64,000 bases of DNA from Candidatus Altimarinota bacterium (GTDB lineage: Bacteria; Patescibacteriota; Gracilibacteria; BD1-5; UBA6164): the NCBI GenBank assembly GCA_013350285.1, contig JAAXWG010000004.1, forward strand, positions 124,001 through 188,000, read 5' to 3'. Position numbers and translations under genes: made by a program. The notes under the pieces are model-generated. The model was given only the letters and a program-made list of their open reading frames with translations, did no database searches and was not told the origin of the DNA. Numbering within the stretch: the first letter of the stretch is position 1; every line of letters begins with the position of its first letter. This document shows positions 1 to 52,170 of this stretch, piece by piece.

Positions 1-549
1 TCCATTAATTCATACTTTTTTGGCTTCGTTGATATTTTTCTCTGAATCATCAAAAAATAGAGTTTCTTCAGCTTCAATGCCCTTTTTATTTAAGTAATTT
101 AAAATAAATTCATAAAATTCTTTTTCAGGTTTTTTATAAGCAATCTCAGCAGATGAAAAAACGAAATCAAATAATTCACCAAATTTCATATTTTTCCTCA
201 TAAATTGTGTTCTATATTTTTCTTGATTTGTTGCGATACAGCATTTTATTCCTTTTTTCCTCAATTTTTTTACGATTTCAAGCATTTTTTCATCTGGATT
301 ATTTCCCATTTCAAACCAAAATTCCAAAAATTCATCTGTTGTTTTTTCCCAGTTCCATTTTGGGAGCCATATTTGTAGTATTTCTTTTAGATCAGCTTTT
401 CCAATGATGCAATTTTGAAACTCCCCTTCAAAAAAGGGGAGCATTTCTCCACTTGGGAGATTATATTTTTTTTCATACTGAGTACTAAATATTTCAGAAT
501 TTCTTATTACAACACCATCTGCATCAAAAAGTATACATTTTATTGCCAT
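1..549 (-). CDS. HAD-superfamily hydrolase (3' end beyond window)
   Basis: Haloacid-dehalogenase-like phosphatase of unknown substrate. Seen: motif I FDADGV at residues 8-13 with the two catalytic Asp, motif II region ATNQEK, the KKP lysine of motif III, and the metal-binding FFDDSEKN near residue 166. A TGA after NINEAKKV must be read as Gly (giving KKVGING), so the gene runs off the left edge of the window. The ATG at 549 is the first start. A 3' end outside the window means total length is unknown; the family is usually 190-220 residues. Substrate cannot be told from sequence. Confidence 0.85.
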
Positions 550-557
550 AATGACTC

Positions 558-1028
558 TTATTTCTCAAGATTTACAAATTCTGTGATATCTCCTGCAAGC
601 TCTCATTTGAGTTTGTAGCTTTTTACAGCTTCTTTGTGTTGAGCAAGAGTATTAAAAAATATATCTTTTTCTTCTCCATAGGGAAGTACAAGCTTTGCTT
701 CTATGTTTTCATATATTTTCACTGCATTTTTTGTTCCTGGAAGAATAAGTACATCTACATCTCAAAAAAAACTAAGATTTTCTTCATTAAGTTCAAAACT
801 ATCACTTGTAAGGATAACAATTCTTACCTTTTCAGCATTAAATTTATAAAATAGATTTTCTTGTTTTTCCATTACTTCCAAGAGAATTTCTGACTTTTCG
901 TATTCTCATGGGAAGTTTATATCAAATCCATCAAGAAGGACTGTTTTTTCTTGGAGAAAAAAATTAATTTCTTTTTTATTATCATTAACAATAGCAAGAT
1001 TATCTCATTTATAAAAAAATTCTAACAT
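558..1028 (-). CDS. Degenerate metallo-beta-lactamase-fold protein
   Basis: 156-residue protein starting MLEFFYKGDNLAI. It resembles the short UlaG-like Zn hydrolases of candidate-phyla genomes: it keeps the FPGEYE strand (about residues 39-44) and the GDVDVLILPG ... LVLPYGEEKD pattern that in the family precedes the C-terminal metal His. The usual HxHxDH metal motif is not present, so it is probably non-catalytic or strongly diverged. Three in-frame TGA codons fall at plausible Gly positions. It sits between the Nudix and HAD genes on the same strand with short gaps, suggesting one transcript. The family assignment is an inference from two short motifs. Confidence 0.6.
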
Positions 1029-1040
1029 AAATATAAAAAA

Positions 1041-1493
1041 TTATATAAAATAAACTTTATTTTTATTTACAAGACTTACAATGTCAAACTTTATCTCAAG
1101 ATTTTTTATTTCATCAAGAGAAAACCATTTGTATCAAGTAAATCTTTCTTCTGTTCTCACTTTTGGGGTTTCATTTCAATTATATTTTACCAAAAAAAGA
1201 TACACATCTTTTTCTATCAAAGGATTATCTTGTAAGTGTCATGCAGTAAAAGTATAGCTTAGTTTAGTCATAAATTTTATGATTTCTAGGTCTTTTTCTT
1301 TTAATCCTGTTTCTTCACTTATTTCTCTTACAGCTGTTTCTTTTGCGATTTCTCCTTCTTCTATTTTCCCTTTAGGAAGAACATACTCTTCCTCTTGTCT
1401 TGAATTTGTCCATCTAAGAAGCAAAATTTCTATTTTGTTTCCATTTTTTCTGTAGACGACTCATCACGAGCTTTTTTCATATCTTTTTGCCAT
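1041..1493 (-). CDS. Nudix hydrolase
   Basis: 150-residue Nudix-family pyrophosphohydrolase. Seen: a complete Nudix box (G-x5-E-x7-REIxEETG) at about residues 48-70, preceded by the SSGGVVYR strand that opens these domains; the two glycines of SSGG are TGA codons, which supports the Gly recoding. The start ATG at 1493 gives the usual length. It is the first gene of a minus-strand run with the two genes downstream (15-nt gap to the next). The family hydrolyses nucleoside diphosphates linked to another moiety (NTPs, dinucleoside polyphosphates); the actual substrate is not evident. Confidence 0.92.
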
Positions 1494-1654
1494 AAAAATA
1501 ATTTGAAAATCTAAATGTAGTGAAAAACTTTCTCTAATATAAACAAAAAGATAAAAAAAACAAATCTTTATAATTTTTGAAATATTTTAAAAACTATGTT
1601 ACAATAAATAAGGATACACAAAAACAAAAATAAAATATAAAATAAAAACAAAAA

Positions 1655-2656
1655 ATGGAAGATAAAATTAATGATTGAGATATTCTTGCATCTCTTGATT
1701 TGAATACAGAAAATGAATCAAAAGAAACAAATTATGAAGAAGTTGTTGCTTCTTATAATGAAAACAAAAACTTTGAAGATGTTTTTTGAGTTTCAGATTT
1801 TGCTATAAGTTGAGAAGAACAAGAACAGATATTACAAAATACTTTTTCTTGAGAATGAGAAAATGAGGAAAAGATTTGAGAAAAAAATTTTTTTGAAAAA
1901 CTAAAATCTCTTTTTCATTTTACCACAGGGTATGCTTTTACTTCAGCAATTATATTTGTAGTTTTACTTCTTTTTTCAAATTACAATGCTTATTATAATA
2001 TAGTAAAAAGTTATGTATTTCAATGACAATTTAGAAAAAATGAAGAGCTTCTTATTAATTCTGTAGAAGCCTCAAGTCTTGTCTCAAAAGAACAGGAAAC
2101 CGGTAAAAATACTCTTGAGCTTAATAGTGCTAATCAGCACTCTATAAAGAGACTTATAGCTGAATCTAATAAAGAAGATTTAGAGCTTAATATTGATATA
2201 ACACCTTATGAAAATAGAATTGTTATACCAAAAATTTCAAAAAATATTCCTCTTGTAGATATAAAAAATCAAACGATAGAAGGACAAAATGAGCTTAATA
2301 ATATTTTTATGAAAGAACTTGAAAATGGAGTTATTCGTTATCCTTGAAGCTCAAAACCTTGAAAAGATGGGACAACTTTTATCTTTTGACATTCTTCAAA
2401 TTTTCCTTGGATAAAAGGGGATTACAATGATGTTTTTGCCTTACTTGATAATGTGGTAAAAGATGATATTATTGTTATTTATTATAATCAAGAAAAATAT
2501 ACTTATAAGGTAAAAGAGAAAAAAGTAGTAAAACCATGAGATATTTCCGTTTTAAAAAGAGAAGTAGGGACGAATGAGCTTTCTATAATGACTTGTTGGC
2601 CAGTTGGAACTACTTTTAATAGACTTATTGTTGTTTCTGAATTAGTAAAAGAATAA
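1655..2656 (+). CDS. Sortase, membrane-anchored
   Basis: 333-residue sortase-family transpeptidase. An acidic N-terminal cytoplasmic stretch of about 90 residues (rich in Asp/Glu and TGA-coded Gly) is followed by a single membrane segment (FTSAIIFVVLLLF) and an extracytoplasmic domain. The catalytic His lies in FGHSSNFPW and the catalytic Cys in MTCWPVGTTFNRL with a downstream Arg, the standard His-Cys-Arg set; TCWP is typical of class D/E and candidate-phyla enzymes. The long cytoplasmic N-terminus is unusual. It would attach surface proteins or link pilin-like subunits; no sorting-signal substrate was recognised in this window. Confidence 0.88.
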
Positions 2657-2673
2657 AGATTAATTGAAAAAAA

Positions 2674-2964
2674 ATGAAAGAATATACTTTTTCTATGACA
2701 TTTTCTGATATTATACATCATTTCAAAACCTTTTCTGATTTTGTAATTCTAGATTATATACTTTTTTTATGAGGGCTTTTGTGAATAATTCTTTTTGTTT
2801 TGTATATTTTTCCAATTATGTCGTTTTTTAGAGAAGCTCTTGGTGAGCAAAAAACAAGTAGAAAAAAAAGACAAATGCTTGATCAAATAATGACTCAAAA
2901 GGAAATAGAAGAAGAGATAGAAAGAGAAATTAAGGAGGAAGAAGAAAAAAAATTAGGAATATAA
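2674..2964 (+). CDS. Small single-pass membrane protein
   Basis: 96 residues, starting 17 nt after the sortase stop and so probably co-transcribed. One hydrophobic segment (residues about 28-50, containing two TGA-coded Gly) is followed by a highly charged coiled-coil-like tail rich in Glu and Lys (EIEEEIEREIKEEEEKK). No family was recognised. Its position suggests an accessory role next to the sortase, but nothing in the sequence proves it. Confidence 0.65.
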
Positions 2965-2998
2965 AAAAAGAGGAGAAAAATTTTTCTCCTCTTTTTTT
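2963..2998. terminator. Bidirectional intrinsic terminator
   Basis: Perfect inverted repeat with an 18-nt arm (A-run, GAGGAG, A-run against T-run, CTCCTC, T-run), giving a T-tract on both strands. It lies between the convergent sortase operon and the secreted coiled-coil gene. Confidence 0.85.
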
Positions 2999-3012
2999 AT
3001 ATTTATCAAATT

Positions 3013-3981
3013 TTATCCAAAAAGTGCTTCTAAATCAACTTCATCGTTTATAATAGTTGTTTCATCTATTTTATTTTCAAGAATTTCTTTTAATGCTTCA
3101 AGTTGAGCAAGGATTTTATCTTTGCTTGCTTGAGTTAGTTTCTTATTATTTGTTGTTGTTTGTATCATTGTATTTACTTTTGTGAGAACCTTTTCAAGCT
3201 TATCAGCAGAAATGGTATCAAGCTTTGATTTCAATTTGTTCATAAAAGCTGTTTTATATTTTTCTATAAGCTCTGCTCTTTCTTCTCTCCATTTTTTTCT
3301 TGTATCAAGATTTTCTTGTCTTAGGTCTTTATTTTTGTCCAAAACCTCTATTCTTTTATCTATAAGTCCTACTAAATTTGCATTTTCTCCAACAATTTCT
3401 TTTACTTTTTCTGCATATTTTTTGTGGATTGCATTTATTTCTTCTATAATAAGCTTTCTTGTATCTATATCTTTTTCTTGTCTCAATTTTTCAATAAATG
3501 GTTCTAACTCCTCTTTCATTTGATCATTAAGGGCTTTGATTTTCTCTTTTTGTTCATTTGTAAAAAGAGCTCAAGAGGCAGATTTTAAATCCTTTACATC
3601 ATCTCTAAATTCTTGTCTATTTTTTTTCATTTCTTCTTTATTTTCTTCTATGTTTTCTTTTTTATCTTGTTTTAAAATTTTTAAATCTTCTTTTTTTATA
3701 ATAGATCCACTAACACTTTGAGGAATATATAGTCAACTTTGAGTCATAATAGCTCCACTTAAATTCCTTCATTTATTCATTTTTTTATCAAAATCCTCAT
3801 TTATTTTTTTAAATTTTTCTTGAAAGGATTCACCACTTCAGCTTCTTATTATAGATCAAGTATTATCATCTGAATAGTAAGGAGATTTTATTGTTGAACC
3901 AATTTTTTCATCTGCATATAATCAATTTATAATACAAAAACTTATAAATATTGAAAGTACTAAATATTGTAATTTTTTCAT
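3013..3981 (-). CDS. Secreted coiled-coil protein, unknown
   Basis: 322 residues with an N-terminal signal peptide (MKKLQYLVLSIFISFCIINGLYA, cleavage likely near residue 23). The mature part is Ser/Gly-rich at first, then almost entirely Lys/Glu/Asp-rich helix with heptad character from about residue 125 to the end. No cysteine-based or catalytic motif was seen. Six in-frame TGA codons occur in the first half. It resembles periplasmic or surface-exposed helical spacer proteins; no family is claimed. Confidence 0.75.
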
Positions 3982-48448: not shown

Positions 48449-51400
48449 ATGGAAACAGGATTTATTATAAAATTTAATAAATTTCTAAGGAAAGGAGATT
48501 GGTTAAAAAAAGAAGAAAGCAAAAAGCTTTGTGATTTTTTTGAGTCTGATAAGGAAAATAACGAGTTATTTTTAGTAGAAAGAGCAAGAGAATATTCTAT
48601 AGAAAGCTGAGAAGAAAATAAAATGAAGTTTTATATTCTCTCTGAATTTTTCAAATACCTCTGAGAAGAACATAATTTTTCAAATGATAAGATAATCTCT
48701 ATTTTAAAAGAAAGATTGGAGAAAATTATTGAAAATAATAATTTTAGAGAGTACTCTTACACTTTAGAAGTTCTCTTTTCAATAAATAAAGAAGATATGG
48801 AGTATTATATAAACCAATATGATTTACTTATAAAAAATAATAGTTTATATCATGATATTAATGCTCAATTTTTAACGATTTTTATTAAATTGAAGATTAA
48901 TGATAAATTTATCCGAGCTTTTCAGAAAGTCATTATTGATAATACAAGAGAAGCTTATTTTTACTCTGTAAAAGAATGATTTAAATATCTATTTTCTTTA
49001 AATAACTCAGAATTTAAGAAATATTTTTTGCAGTTATTAGATTTTTTCTCTAAAGAACAAAACAAAGAAAAATTAGTTCATTATCATGAGTATACATCTC
49101 TTATTAGAAGCTATGATAAAAAGGATTTTATAGAAATATTCAAGAATTTTAATAGTAAATTAGATAATGCGAATTTTTCAGAAGAAGAAAGGAAAAAAAT
49201 AAAAGAATTTTTAATTTGAGATATTGATTTTGCAATCAATAAATTTGAAAGAAATTTGACGAATAATTTCTTTATAAATCAGTTATTTTTATATTTTTAT
49301 GAAAAAGATAATATATTTCTTATAGAAATTTTACAGTGATTAAATGCGAAACATTTAATATTTTCTTTAGATAAATTTGTTTCAGAATATTTAAGTGAAG
49401 ACTTCATTGAGGATTTTATACAATTATACAGGGATACAGACAATGTAAATCTTATCTATTTTATTTATGATATTGCAAAAAATTCTTGAAAAGAAATATT
49501 AGTAAAATCTTTTGAAAAATCATCTTTTGAAAAAAAAATTAAAGATAGAAATAAGCAAATAGAAAAAAATAATGAGAAATATGAAAAAGAAAAGAAAGAA
49601 AGAATAGAAAAAGAAAAAAAAGAATTTTTTTCTATGTTAAATCCAGAAAAATGACATTATTATCCTAAAATATTTCAAGATTATCATAATTACATATCAA
49701 ATAAAGAATGATTGTTAGAAAAGACTTTTAGTAAGCAGGAAATACAGGAAATAAATATTTCCATAAGAAAACAAATAAAGACATTATTTGAAATATTGAA
49801 AACAAAAGATTATCAAGATGAAAAAATTGTGCAAATTCTTACTTTTGAGAAAACTTGAGAAAATTCATATTCACATACTTGGTATGCTACTTATTTGTCT
49901 TGGATTATAGATATTGCAAAATATCTTACAATGGATCTTTCTGATTATTATAAGATATTTGTATTATTTTATCCTTTGCTTTGGTGAGGTGAAAATATAG
50001 AAAATATATTGGCTATAATTTCAAAAAAAATAAATAAAGATGATATAGATTATATTTTAAGAGTTTATAGTGAGGATTTGCATGAAAATGCCATTTGATT
50101 ACGATACTATCATATTGATATTTTAACGGATTTTTATAATAAATTTAAAGTGGATTTTAGTCCAACACAAAAGAAAAAACTAGAGGAAATTTGCTTGGAT
50201 GTGATTGATTGAAATGAGGAAAACAATATTTATTACAAGAAGGATTTTTTAAAAATATATTCTGAAATATGATGAGAAAAGAAATTATTAAAACTATGGA
50301 ATAATTGGTGAAAAAATTTTCAGAAATTTAATTATTTCAAAGATTTTTTAGATAACCCAGAAGAAAAAAAAGAGCAAAAAGACAAGATGAAATTTTTTAC
50401 TTTTATTACACAAGAGTTAGCAAAAACTTATTGAAATAAGGAAGCATTGAAATGGTTTATAAATCAATTAAAAAATGGAAAAGTAGAAGCAAAAGAAAGT
50501 TTTAAAATAGAATATCCGAGAACTTCTACTCATATGGCTTGAATATCTGACAAAGAATCTGAATTATGAAAATGGTGAAGTAATGATAATAATTTTTCTT
50601 TTATTTTTAGTGTTATTGCAAAAATAGATATTTTAGATGAGATGTTAGAAATTCTTGATTTATCCTTTCAAATAGTATCGGATTTACAATCTTGAAAATT
50701 AAAGTGAAATTATGAGATGTATGCTGACTATTTAAGAAGAATATTTTATGAATATATTGAAAATTTAGATGAAAGCTTAGTGTATAAAGATTATTATTAT
50801 AAAGTAAAAAAACTTTTAGATAAATATGATTATAAGGTTACTTATAATTTCAATTTAGAACCTCTAAAAAAGAAATTTTGAATTGATGATTTAGAGGAAG
50901 AAGCATTAGAAATTATTGAAAAAGATTGAGTAGAAGGAATAAAAAAATTGTTAAAGGAAAAATATTCGCTTCAAGATGAAAATGCTAGCTTAAAGATGCA
51001 TCCTATTCAAACAAACGATACTAAAGATAAAGATTTTATTTTGTTTGTAGAATGAATTAGTGATATTATCATTCTACAAAATGCTTGGGAAAAATTAAGA
51101 GAAAATAAAGAAATGCCTTTTAGAATAGAAAACTGATATCATAAATATAATATTTGAGAAATGTTTAGAAATAAAGACTACCCTATTATGTATCATAATC
51201 CCAATAAAACTATTATTTGAATGTTAGACTTTGATTCAGCATACAACGAATTTAATTGATTAAACTCTAAAAATAATTGGGAACAAGTCATTTCTAATGA
51301 AAGTAAATGATTATTAAAGAGAAATCAAAAATTTAATAAAGGATATATTTTTTTATTACCAGTACCAAATATTAGAAAGGAATATGCAAGTTCCTTATTT

Positions 51401-51658
51401 TGAGATAAATCAATATTGAGTATAGAAATGTTATTTGAGGACAAAATTATTTTAAATAAAAATAAATATGGAGATTATATTTATGTGGAAGAATTAAAAA
51501 TACCATGAAATCATAAAAATGTTTTATTTTGATTTAAAAATGACAAGAAAAAAGATTTTGCAGATACTACAAATACTTTTTCTAAAGAAGAATTTAAAAA
51601 CTTTGAGCATATTTTTAAACTTATGGAAGATATTATTTCTTGAAAATATGAAAAGTAG
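48449..51658 (+). CDS. Large helical protein with C-terminal Toprim-like domain (candidate defence protein)
   Basis: 1069 residues, many TGA-coded Gly. Residues 1 to about 850 are mostly helical and charged, with HEAT/ARM-like appearance but no recognised motif. From about 860 a Toprim-like fold follows: FILFVEGISDIIIL (Glu868) and TIIGMLDFDSAYNEF (Asp927, Asp929), the E...DxD set of OLD-type nucleases, primases and RNase M5. No ATPase domain as in OLD was seen. It sits alone in a repeat-rich patch beside a tRNA cluster, a common place for accessory and anti-phage genes. A role in defence is inference. Confidence 0.7.
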
Positions 51659-51705
51659 TAAAATACCAAAAGCTCCTTTCTCGTTTCACTTATATTCTGA
51701 TAACT

Positions 51706-51755
51706 AAAAATATCCTCCAAATTATGTATAATTACATAACTTAAAGGATATTTTT
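51706..51755. terminator. Terminator between the Toprim gene and the tRNA cluster
   Basis: 11-bp stem AAAAATATCCT/AGGATATTTTT, with a second palindrome (TTATGTATAATTACATAA) in the loop. T-runs on both strands: it could end both the plus-strand gene and the minus-strand tRNA transcript. Confidence 0.8.
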
Positions 51756-51758
51756 AAA

Positions 51759-51835
51759 TGGTCGGGAACGTGAGACTCGAACTCACAACCCCACGGTCCC
51801 AAACCGTGTGCGCTAGCCAATTGCGCCAGTTCCCG
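51759..51835 (-). tRNA. tRNA-Pro (UGG)
   Basis: Minus strand: acceptor CGGGAAC/GTTCCCG, D-arm GGCGCAATTGGCTAGCGC, anticodon loop TTTGGGA with anticodon TGG, T-arm AGTTCGAGTC, encoded CCA. Confidence 0.95.
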
Positions 51836-51868
51836 AAAATTTTTTATAATGGTCTTTTCTTTTTTTAC

Positions 51869-51893
51869 AGATTCCTGTCTTCACAGGAATGAC
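51869..51893. repeat. REP-like palindrome between tRNAs
   Basis: ATTCCTGTCTTCACAGGAAT, a variant on the opposite strand of the palindrome at 14128 and 48113. Confidence 0.75.
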
Positions 51894-51904
51894 AGTTTTG
51901 TAAA

Positions 51905-51981
51905 TGGTGGGTATAGGTAGACTTGAACTACCGACCTCACGATTATCAGTCGTGCGCTCTAACCAACTGAGCTATACACCC
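51905..51981 (-). tRNA. tRNA-Ile (GAU)
   Basis: Minus strand: acceptor GGGTGTA/TATACCC, D-arm AGCTCAGTTGGTTAGAGC, anticodon loop CTGATAA with anticodon GAT, T-arm AGTTCAAGTCT, encoded CCA. Confidence 0.95.
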
Positions 51982-52093
51982 ACAAAATCAAAGATTAATA
52001 ATTGCTCTCAAAGTATAAAAAAAAGTAGATATATATAGAAAGCACTTTCTTATAATTCTCTTTCTACTTTCTACTTTTTTTGTTTCTTTTAAA

Positions 52094-52170
52094 TGGAGCG
52101 GGTGATGGGACTCGAACCCACAACCCTCTGCTTGGAAGGCAGATGCTCTAGCCAATTGAGCTACACCCGC
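52094..52170 (-). tRNA. tRNA-Gly (UCC)
   Basis: Minus strand: acceptor GCGGGTG/CACCCGC, D-arm AGCTCAATTGGCTAGAGC, anticodon loop CTTCCAA with anticodon TCC, T-arm GGTTCGAGTCC, encoded CCA. It reads GGN codons; the UCA-anticodon tRNA needed for UGA is not in the window. Confidence 0.96.

What the first reader, a model, noticed from the sequence alone, without database searches (positions are those of the whole stretch)
48449..51658. Candidate single-gene defence system: giant helical protein with Toprim domain
1069 residues, helical N-terminal 850 residues of no recognised family, C-terminal Toprim with Glu868 and Asp927/Asp929 as in OLD-type nucleases, but no ATPase. Located in a repeat-rich patch ending at a tRNA cluster, between a GT2 and three tRNAs. 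Could be a new class of Toprim-effector immunity protein or another nucleic-acid enzyme.
Basis: partly seen in the sequence, partly recalled or inferred. Interest (0 to 1): 0.75.

Follow-up and report, generated by a model that had tools for sequence, protein, structure and literature searches.

The report
Solenoid-Toprim fusion, likely phage-defence nuclease
A rare, patchily distributed protein of recoded Gracilibacteria-type bacteria joins a long helical sensor-like arm to a nuclease domain closely related to the RNA-cutting part of retron Eco2, so it is probably a one-gene immune protein built from parts that other phage-defence systems use separately.

Summary
The open frame at 48449-51658 is real, but only under code 25 (TGA = Gly). 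It encodes a 1069-residue protein with no curated family. Residues 1 to about 840 model as a HEAT-like alpha-solenoid. Residues 856-1069 are a Toprim domain with complete catalytic residues (E868, D872, D927, D929, E993, K1034). Its nearest solved relative, by profile and by fold, is the Toprim effector of retron Eco2 (Ec67), a published RNase; class 2 OLD, GajA and AriB come next. The protein has no Walker A motif, and no reverse transcriptase or ATPase gene was found beside it. Full-length relatives occur in 8 of 353 genomes of the class (one as two adjacent genes), so it is accessory, not core. The same Toprim lineage is fused to OLD-type ATPases, twice beside type I restriction genes. The solenoid half is shared with NACHT-like proteins related to antiphage EruA/HyoA, one of them beside a tRNA and a serine recombinase. 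Best reading: an autoinhibited single-gene immune protein, analogous to DSR2 but with an Eco2-type nuclease, probably acting on RNA. Defence and substrate are inferred, not shown. The 'repeat-rich' claim was not supported. New variant of a known kind.

The parts
48449..51658 (+). 1069-aa gene (code 25, TGA=Gly), solenoid-Toprim protein P0001
   Evidence: TGA faces Gly in standard-code relatives
48449..49246 (+). N-terminal solenoid, residues 1-266; among the less conserved parts (51% / 32% identity to the two nearest relatives)
   Evidence: AF2 model; identities
49247..50851 (+). solenoid half shared with NACHT-like proteins, residues about 267-801
   Evidence: HMMER E 3.9e-39 to G676; hhalign 99.4% and 97.9%; reversed-ORF control
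51014..51655 (+). Toprim domain, residues 856-1069, retron Ec67/Eco2-like
51050..51064 (+). EGxxD motif: E868 (metal A), G869 (coded by TGA), D872 (metal B)
   Evidence: alignment; Eco2 roles from PMC12405507
51227..51235 (+). DxD motif, D927 and D929 (metal A)
51425..51427 (+). E993 (metal B, faces Eco2 E515)
51548..51550 (+). K1034, candidate catalytic lysine
   Evidence: invariant in A6 and in the 6 of 7 members that reach it; faces Eco2 K546 by my count on the alignment, whereas the paper names K562
51705..51756 (.). inverted repeat (24-nt arms, 88%) between this gene and tRNA-Pro, possible two-way terminator
51759..52170 (-). tRNA-Pro, tRNA-Ile, tRNA-Gly; their 3' ends face the gene

Best explanation
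An autoinhibited single-gene immune protein. The roughly 840-residue alpha-solenoid holds the C-terminal Toprim nuclease off. When the solenoid binds an invader-derived ligand (most likely a phage protein) its shape changes and frees the nuclease, which uses two metals held by E868/D927/D929 and D872/E993. The freed nuclease then cuts nucleic acid, more likely RNA than DNA because its nearest characterised relative (Eco2) is an RNase, and so arrests phage growth, probably at the cost of the cell. It works like DSR2 (large sensor plus effector in one chain, no NTPase) with an Eco2-type nuclease in place of Sir2. Shown here by computation: gene, code, fold of the Toprim, complete active site, helical arm, shared ancestry of both halves with parts of defence-type proteins, sparse distribution. 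Inferred: autoinhibition, ligand, substrate, defence.
For: Toprim profile to retron Ec67 in the PDB at E 8e-8, and 4e-4 from solenoid-type rows alone, with no other full Toprim recognisable at E<10. Fold: Eco2 Z 11.8, 3.5 A over 178 residues, then OLD 9.7, GajA 8.1, AriB 6.8. Two of 7 solenoid-type Toprims hit PADLOC RT-Toprim_I-C, best 1.2e-10. The six residues named for the two metals in Eco2 are matched in the window protein. In Eco2 the isolated Toprim is toxic and an RNase while the full protein is silent (PMC12405507, passages). The solenoid half is shared with NACHT-like proteins whose best curated matches are antiphage EruA/HyoA (9.3e-8, 2.8e-7, far below cut-off), one beside tRNA-Ser and a serine recombinase. 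The same Toprim sits on OLD-type ATPases, 2 of them beside hsdS. Neighbours of relatives: GmrSD_N (L009); Dam MTase and an AAA_21 gene (L021). Sparse: 8 of 353 genomes.
Against: No defence gene was found among the window's own neighbours. Clear defence-type Pfam neighbours were seen at only 2 of 8 solenoid-type loci, plus a KAP NTPase near a third; no chance rate was computed and not every neighbour was scanned. The window's own Toprim, alone, does not hit RT-Toprim in PADLOC; its only hit is a short stretch of a type II enzyme (5.5e-4). The full-length model has low confidence (pLDDT 62.9, Toprim part about 30), so the arrangement of the two halves is not known. Solenoid matches are generic karyopherin/HEAT rows with Z up to 10.5, below the 13 the tool advises for repeats. 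The metal-B serine is not kept outside the three closest members. An archaeal OLD protein is reported as a cell-cycle factor, not defence (PMC12796447, abstract start in a search listing).
Confidence: 0.6

Rival explanations
1. Defence protein whose Toprim nicks or degrades DNA, as in Gabija GajA or class 2 OLD, with the solenoid as DNA- or protein-binding arm.
For: OLD and GajA Toprims are the next best fold matches (Z 9.7 and 8.1); the closest Toprim sequences outside the solenoid type (L034, L015, 40% and 37%) sit on OLD-type ATPases; two more distant ones lie in type I restriction loci.
Against: Both profile and fold put Eco2, an RNase, nearest. Substrate cannot be read from sequence.
Confidence: 0.2
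2. A non-immune nucleic-acid enzyme: RNA processing, stress RNase or cell-cycle role.
For: No defence neighbours in the window; an archaeal OLD family member is described as a cell-cycle factor (PMC12796447, listing).
Against: 8 of 353 genomes is too sparse for housekeeping; folD next door is in 45 of 48 family genomes; both halves occur in defence-type proteins.
Confidence: 0.15
3. An inactive or decaying relic acquired by transfer.
For: Low G+C for a long frame in this window (0.22).
Against: 1069 codons open with 33 TGA read as Gly, all catalytic residues kept, full-length relatives at 56% and 39%.
Confidence: 0.05

Closest known systems
Retron Eco2 / Ec67 (type I-C, RT-Toprim)
   Same: Nearest solved Toprim by profile (E 8e-8) and fold (Z 11.8); same E, D, DxD, E active-site residues; one gene carries effector and control part
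   Different: No reverse transcriptase in the protein or among the scanned neighbours, no Rfam retron RNA nearby; control part is a solenoid
OLD family nucleases (class 1) and Gabija GajA (class 2)
   Same: C-terminal Toprim with EGxxD and DxD; the nearest non-solenoid Toprims are on OLD-type ATPases
   Different: No ABC ATPase; no UvrD-like partner among the scanned neighbours
NACHT antiphage proteins of the EruA/HyoA kind (NCBIfam NF058535, NF058534)
   Same: Relatives of these (L030, L067) share part of the solenoid
   Different: No NACHT NTPase; effector is Toprim, not the C-terminal PD-(D/E)xK-like motif that I read in L030
DSR2 (Sir2 plus sensor domain)
   Same: Similar plan: effector plus large sensor domain in one chain (PMC10981675, passages); about 1000 residues and no NTPase (recalled)
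   Different: Sir2 NADase at the N-terminus; no sequence relation found
PARIS AriB
   Same: Toprim effector (Z 6.8, 8ux9_A)
   Different: AriB is a separate small protein held by an AriA ATPase (recalled)

Membership tests
OLD family nuclease | N-terminal ABC/AAA_15 ATPase with Walker A | tested here: not met
   no Walker A; no Pfam family
OLD family nuclease | C-terminal Toprim with E and DxD | tested here: met
Retron type I-C (Eco2) | Toprim of the Ec67 kind | tested here: met
Retron type I-C (Eco2) | reverse transcriptase fused to the Toprim | tested here: not met
   no RVT in P0001 or 8 scanned neighbours; the only RVT_1 match in the genome is on another contig
Retron type I-C (Eco2) | msr/msd non-coding RNA next to the gene | tested here: inconclusive
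   Rfam finds only the tRNAs at 44-56 kb; Rfam does not cover all retron RNAs (recalled)
NACHT/STAND antiphage protein | NACHT NTPase with Walker A | tested here: not met
NACHT/STAND antiphage protein | large helical region; here the stretch shared with L030 and L031 | tested here: met
   to L067 weaker (90.7%)
DSR2-like | Sir2 effector | tested here: not met
   no Pfam Sir2
DSR2-like | solenoid sensor related to that of DSR2 | tested here: inconclusive
   no PDB sequence hit for A3 that is a DSR2 chain; DSR2 is not among the rows shown, which excludes nothing
any antiphage system | protects cells from phage | not testable with these tools
   needs phage challenge

The most novel reading that the evidence does not exclude
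A new class of NTPase-free, RT-free immune receptor in which a solenoid shared with NLR-like NACHT proteins directly gates an Eco2-type ribonuclease. It would be the meeting point of modules traded among retrons, OLD/type I restriction loci and NACHT receptors, living in bacteria that read TGA as glycine and whose phages must cope with that code.
Probability: 0.35. Interest if true: 0.75.

Novelty: new variant of a known kind. Interest (0 to 1): 0.62.

Why it matters
If right, one short test asks whether a solenoid alone can gate a Toprim nuclease, without the ATPase, reverse transcriptase or msDNA that control every characterised Toprim effector I know of (recalled). It also ties together effector and sensor modules so far described in separate defence systems, and gives a concrete immune candidate for a recoded, uncultured lineage.

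Tried and rejected
Curated families for the whole protein: none in PADLOC, NCBIfam or PHROGs up to E 10, nor in Pfam apart from a chance Tfb5 match at 0.44. phmmer of P0001 against the PDB: none. tblastn of P0001 in phages and plasmids: none; of the L017 Toprim in both: none; viral-contig scans: none. Genome contigs with P0001 alone: none, with A4: 4 loci. These pattern scans may miss recoded genes because Gly may be TGA.

Domain exchange between OLD-type and solenoid-type proteins: in the Toprim tree the window, G008 and G054 domains group with two OLD-type Toprims (94/91), apart from G017/G081/G014 (100/100). Holding the solenoid type as one clade is not rejected (AU p 0.129 with all 14 rows, 0.0555 without G047, G037 and G014). 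Suggestive only.

Repeat-rich mobile patch: not supported. Empty-site comparison: relatives are too diverged (folD about 50%) and the GT2 neighbour is in 1 of 48 family genomes, so insertion at the tRNA cluster could not be shown. Membership in OLD, retron, NACHT and DSR2 families: each fails a defining feature. Weak rows not used as members: G590 (an OLD-like protein), G903 and G701 (E near 4e-4 and 8e-4). TGA in the 6 recoded relatives where their own codon is unambiguous faces D 19, N 16, then S, G and K 12 each, which is no help for the code; only the standard-code relatives decide.

Full report
The gene. The window reads TGA as glycine. With table 11 the reported span holds only fragments; with table 4 or 25 one frame of 1069 codons runs exactly 48449-51658 and has 33 in-frame TGA. 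Where two standard-code relatives (L034, L035) face TGA codons of this gene they have Gly in 14 of 20 cases. The longest stop-free run in 50 shuffles of the window was 180 codons. The gene has a low G+C (0.22) in a window otherwise full of housekeeping genes.

Distribution. P0001 finds one copy in its own genome and matches in 5 of 77 genomes of the order, own included. A five-row profile finds 11 of 353 genomes of the class. Reading each: 8 carry the solenoid-type architecture (G000, G008, G054, G017, G047, G081, G014 as one gene, the G014 copy cut by its contig end; G037 as a 766-aa solenoid gene followed by a 284-aa Toprim gene). G262 and G301 carry OLD-type proteins (AAA_15 plus this Toprim), and G208 a 644-aa protein of other make-up. 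In the family the solenoid type is in 4 of 48 genomes (counted), while folD, next to the window's tRNAs, is in 45 of 48. Within the class the G054 copy, from another family, is nearer to the window's (38%) than the copies of G017 and G014 in the same family (21% and 20%; all), which fits transfer or old paralogy. The named records behind two copies are 'Patescibacteria group bacterium UBA6489' and 'Candidatus Gracilibacteria bacterium isolate STC_113'.

Toprim half. No library names P0001. A profile of 11 Toprim domains finds, in the PDB, the retron Ec67 protein at E 8e-8 over the whole domain; 7 solenoid-type rows alone give 4e-4. Apart from a 118-aa 'putative protein' at about 0.03, no other Toprim-like entry was recognisable at E up to 10. 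Of 7 solenoid-type Toprims scanned singly, 2 hit PADLOC RT-Toprim_I-C (best 1.2e-10) and 2 hit RT-TIR_XII (1.1e-5); the window's own hits neither. A five-row AF2 model of residues 833-1069 has pLDDT 79.4 and pTM 0.80. Foldseek ranks retron Eco2 first (1.3e-5) and VIA-align gives Eco2 Z 11.8 (178 residues, 3.5 A), OLD 9.7, GajA 8.1, AriB 6.8, retron Eco8 6.2. E868, G869, D872, D927, D929 and E993 are kept in all 7 aligned solenoid-type genes, and K1034 in the 6 that reach it; S991 is kept only in the 3 closest. In Eco2 the matching E374, D460, D462 and D378, S513, E515 hold the two metals. Alanine changes there abolish defence, the isolated domain is toxic and an RNase, and the full protein is not toxic by itself; a phage nuclease, DenB, is the likely trigger (PMC12405507, abstract and passages).

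Solenoid half. AF2 with three rows gives alpha-helix after alpha-helix over residues 1-838, with only two short strands (467-475), pLDDT mostly 60-90, but mean 62.9 overall and a Toprim part too poor to place. Matches are generic HEAT/karyopherin rows. The useful link is by sequence: the profile reaches a 1360-aa NACHT-like protein in G676 (E 3.9e-39, residues about 267-790; hhalign 99.4%) and a 996-aa protein in G604 (hhalign 97.9%). In a control with 500 ORFs and their 500 reversals, no reversed sequence passed E 1. The G676 protein has GEPGVGKT and a C-terminal D...EVK motif and sits between a tRNA-Ser and a serine recombinase; a serine-recombinase-like frame (read by eye) also lies near the G604 gene. 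Its best NCBIfam matches are the antiphage NACHT proteins EruA and HyoA, far below cut-off. It has a relative on Arcobacter plasmids (26%, 80% covered), where the shared solenoid is only weakly seen (90.7%).

Context. The same Toprim lineage lies on OLD-type ATPases in G262, G301, G825, G870 and an Aenigmatarchaeota genome; beside it in G301, and a few hundred bases downstream in G825, is hsdS (for G301, read by eye for G825). Among 8 solenoid-type loci, G047 has a GmrSD_N gene next door, G081 a Dam methylase and an AAA_21 gene, G054 a KAP NTPase; I found none in the window, G008, G017, G014 and G037. I scanned 8 neighbours of the window and a selection around G047, G081, G054 and G017; the rest were read by eye. 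No chance rate was computed.

Reading. A solenoid that in NACHT relatives is part of a defence-type protein is fused here directly to a nuclease of the Eco2 kind, with neither NTPase nor reverse transcriptase. The simplest mechanism is direct gating, as in DSR2, where a large sensor domain binds a phage protein and switches on the effector in the same chain (PMC10981675, passages). RNA is the likelier substrate by kinship; DNA is not excluded. Whether Toprims were exchanged between OLD-type and solenoid-type proteins is suggested but not proven.

Literature. Searches for Toprim with HEAT repeat/STAND/NACHT, alpha-solenoid, and HEAT repeats with retron and defense (0 papers) listed no title or abstract start that describes this architecture; a review of shared defence domains (PMC10952713, passages) and one of OLD nucleases (PMC10568477, passages) mention none in the passages seen. 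EruA/HyoA: no paper in the library. Subscription journals and most preprints are outside it.

Noticed in passing
L018 (G301) 345-3264; L070 (G825) 1-3510: OLD-type ATPase-Toprim genes beside or near hsdS of type I restriction loci; in both, the first Toprim motif has lost its Gly (IED / FED instead of VEG), so the nuclease may be altered.
   Followed up: partly
L034 8801-10576 and L015 189-1964: Closely similar OLD-type proteins in an Aenigmatarchaeota bin and a Patescibacteria bin (short branches, 0.08-0.24 in the trees): transfer across domains or a binning error.
   Followed up: no
L030 6157-10239: NACHT-like protein with C-terminal PD-(D/E)xK-like motif between tRNA-Ser and a serine recombinase, related to EruA/HyoA; a relative lies on Arcobacter plasmids (L067 9935-13981).
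   Followed up: partly
L020 6439-9595: In G037 the solenoid and the Toprim are two adjacent genes in different frames (ATG one base after the stop), just 3' of two tRNA-Met genes: a two-gene form or a frameshift.
   Followed up: partly
L023 6708-9819: In G208 a tyrosine-recombinase-like frame (read by eye) overlaps the start of the longest frame of a 644-aa protein that ends in this Toprim (PADLOC RT-Toprim_I-C 2.3e-4) but has no recognised N-terminal domain.
   Followed up: no
G000:C1:9789-10244 (L073): A reverse transcriptase match (RVT_1, 39.5 bits) on another contig of the window's own genome, unlinked to this gene.
   Followed up: no
L021 5453-6577: 374-aa frame between the solenoid-Toprim gene and a Dam methylase; might be a restriction endonuclease by position, no Pfam or PADLOC match.
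   Followed up: partly
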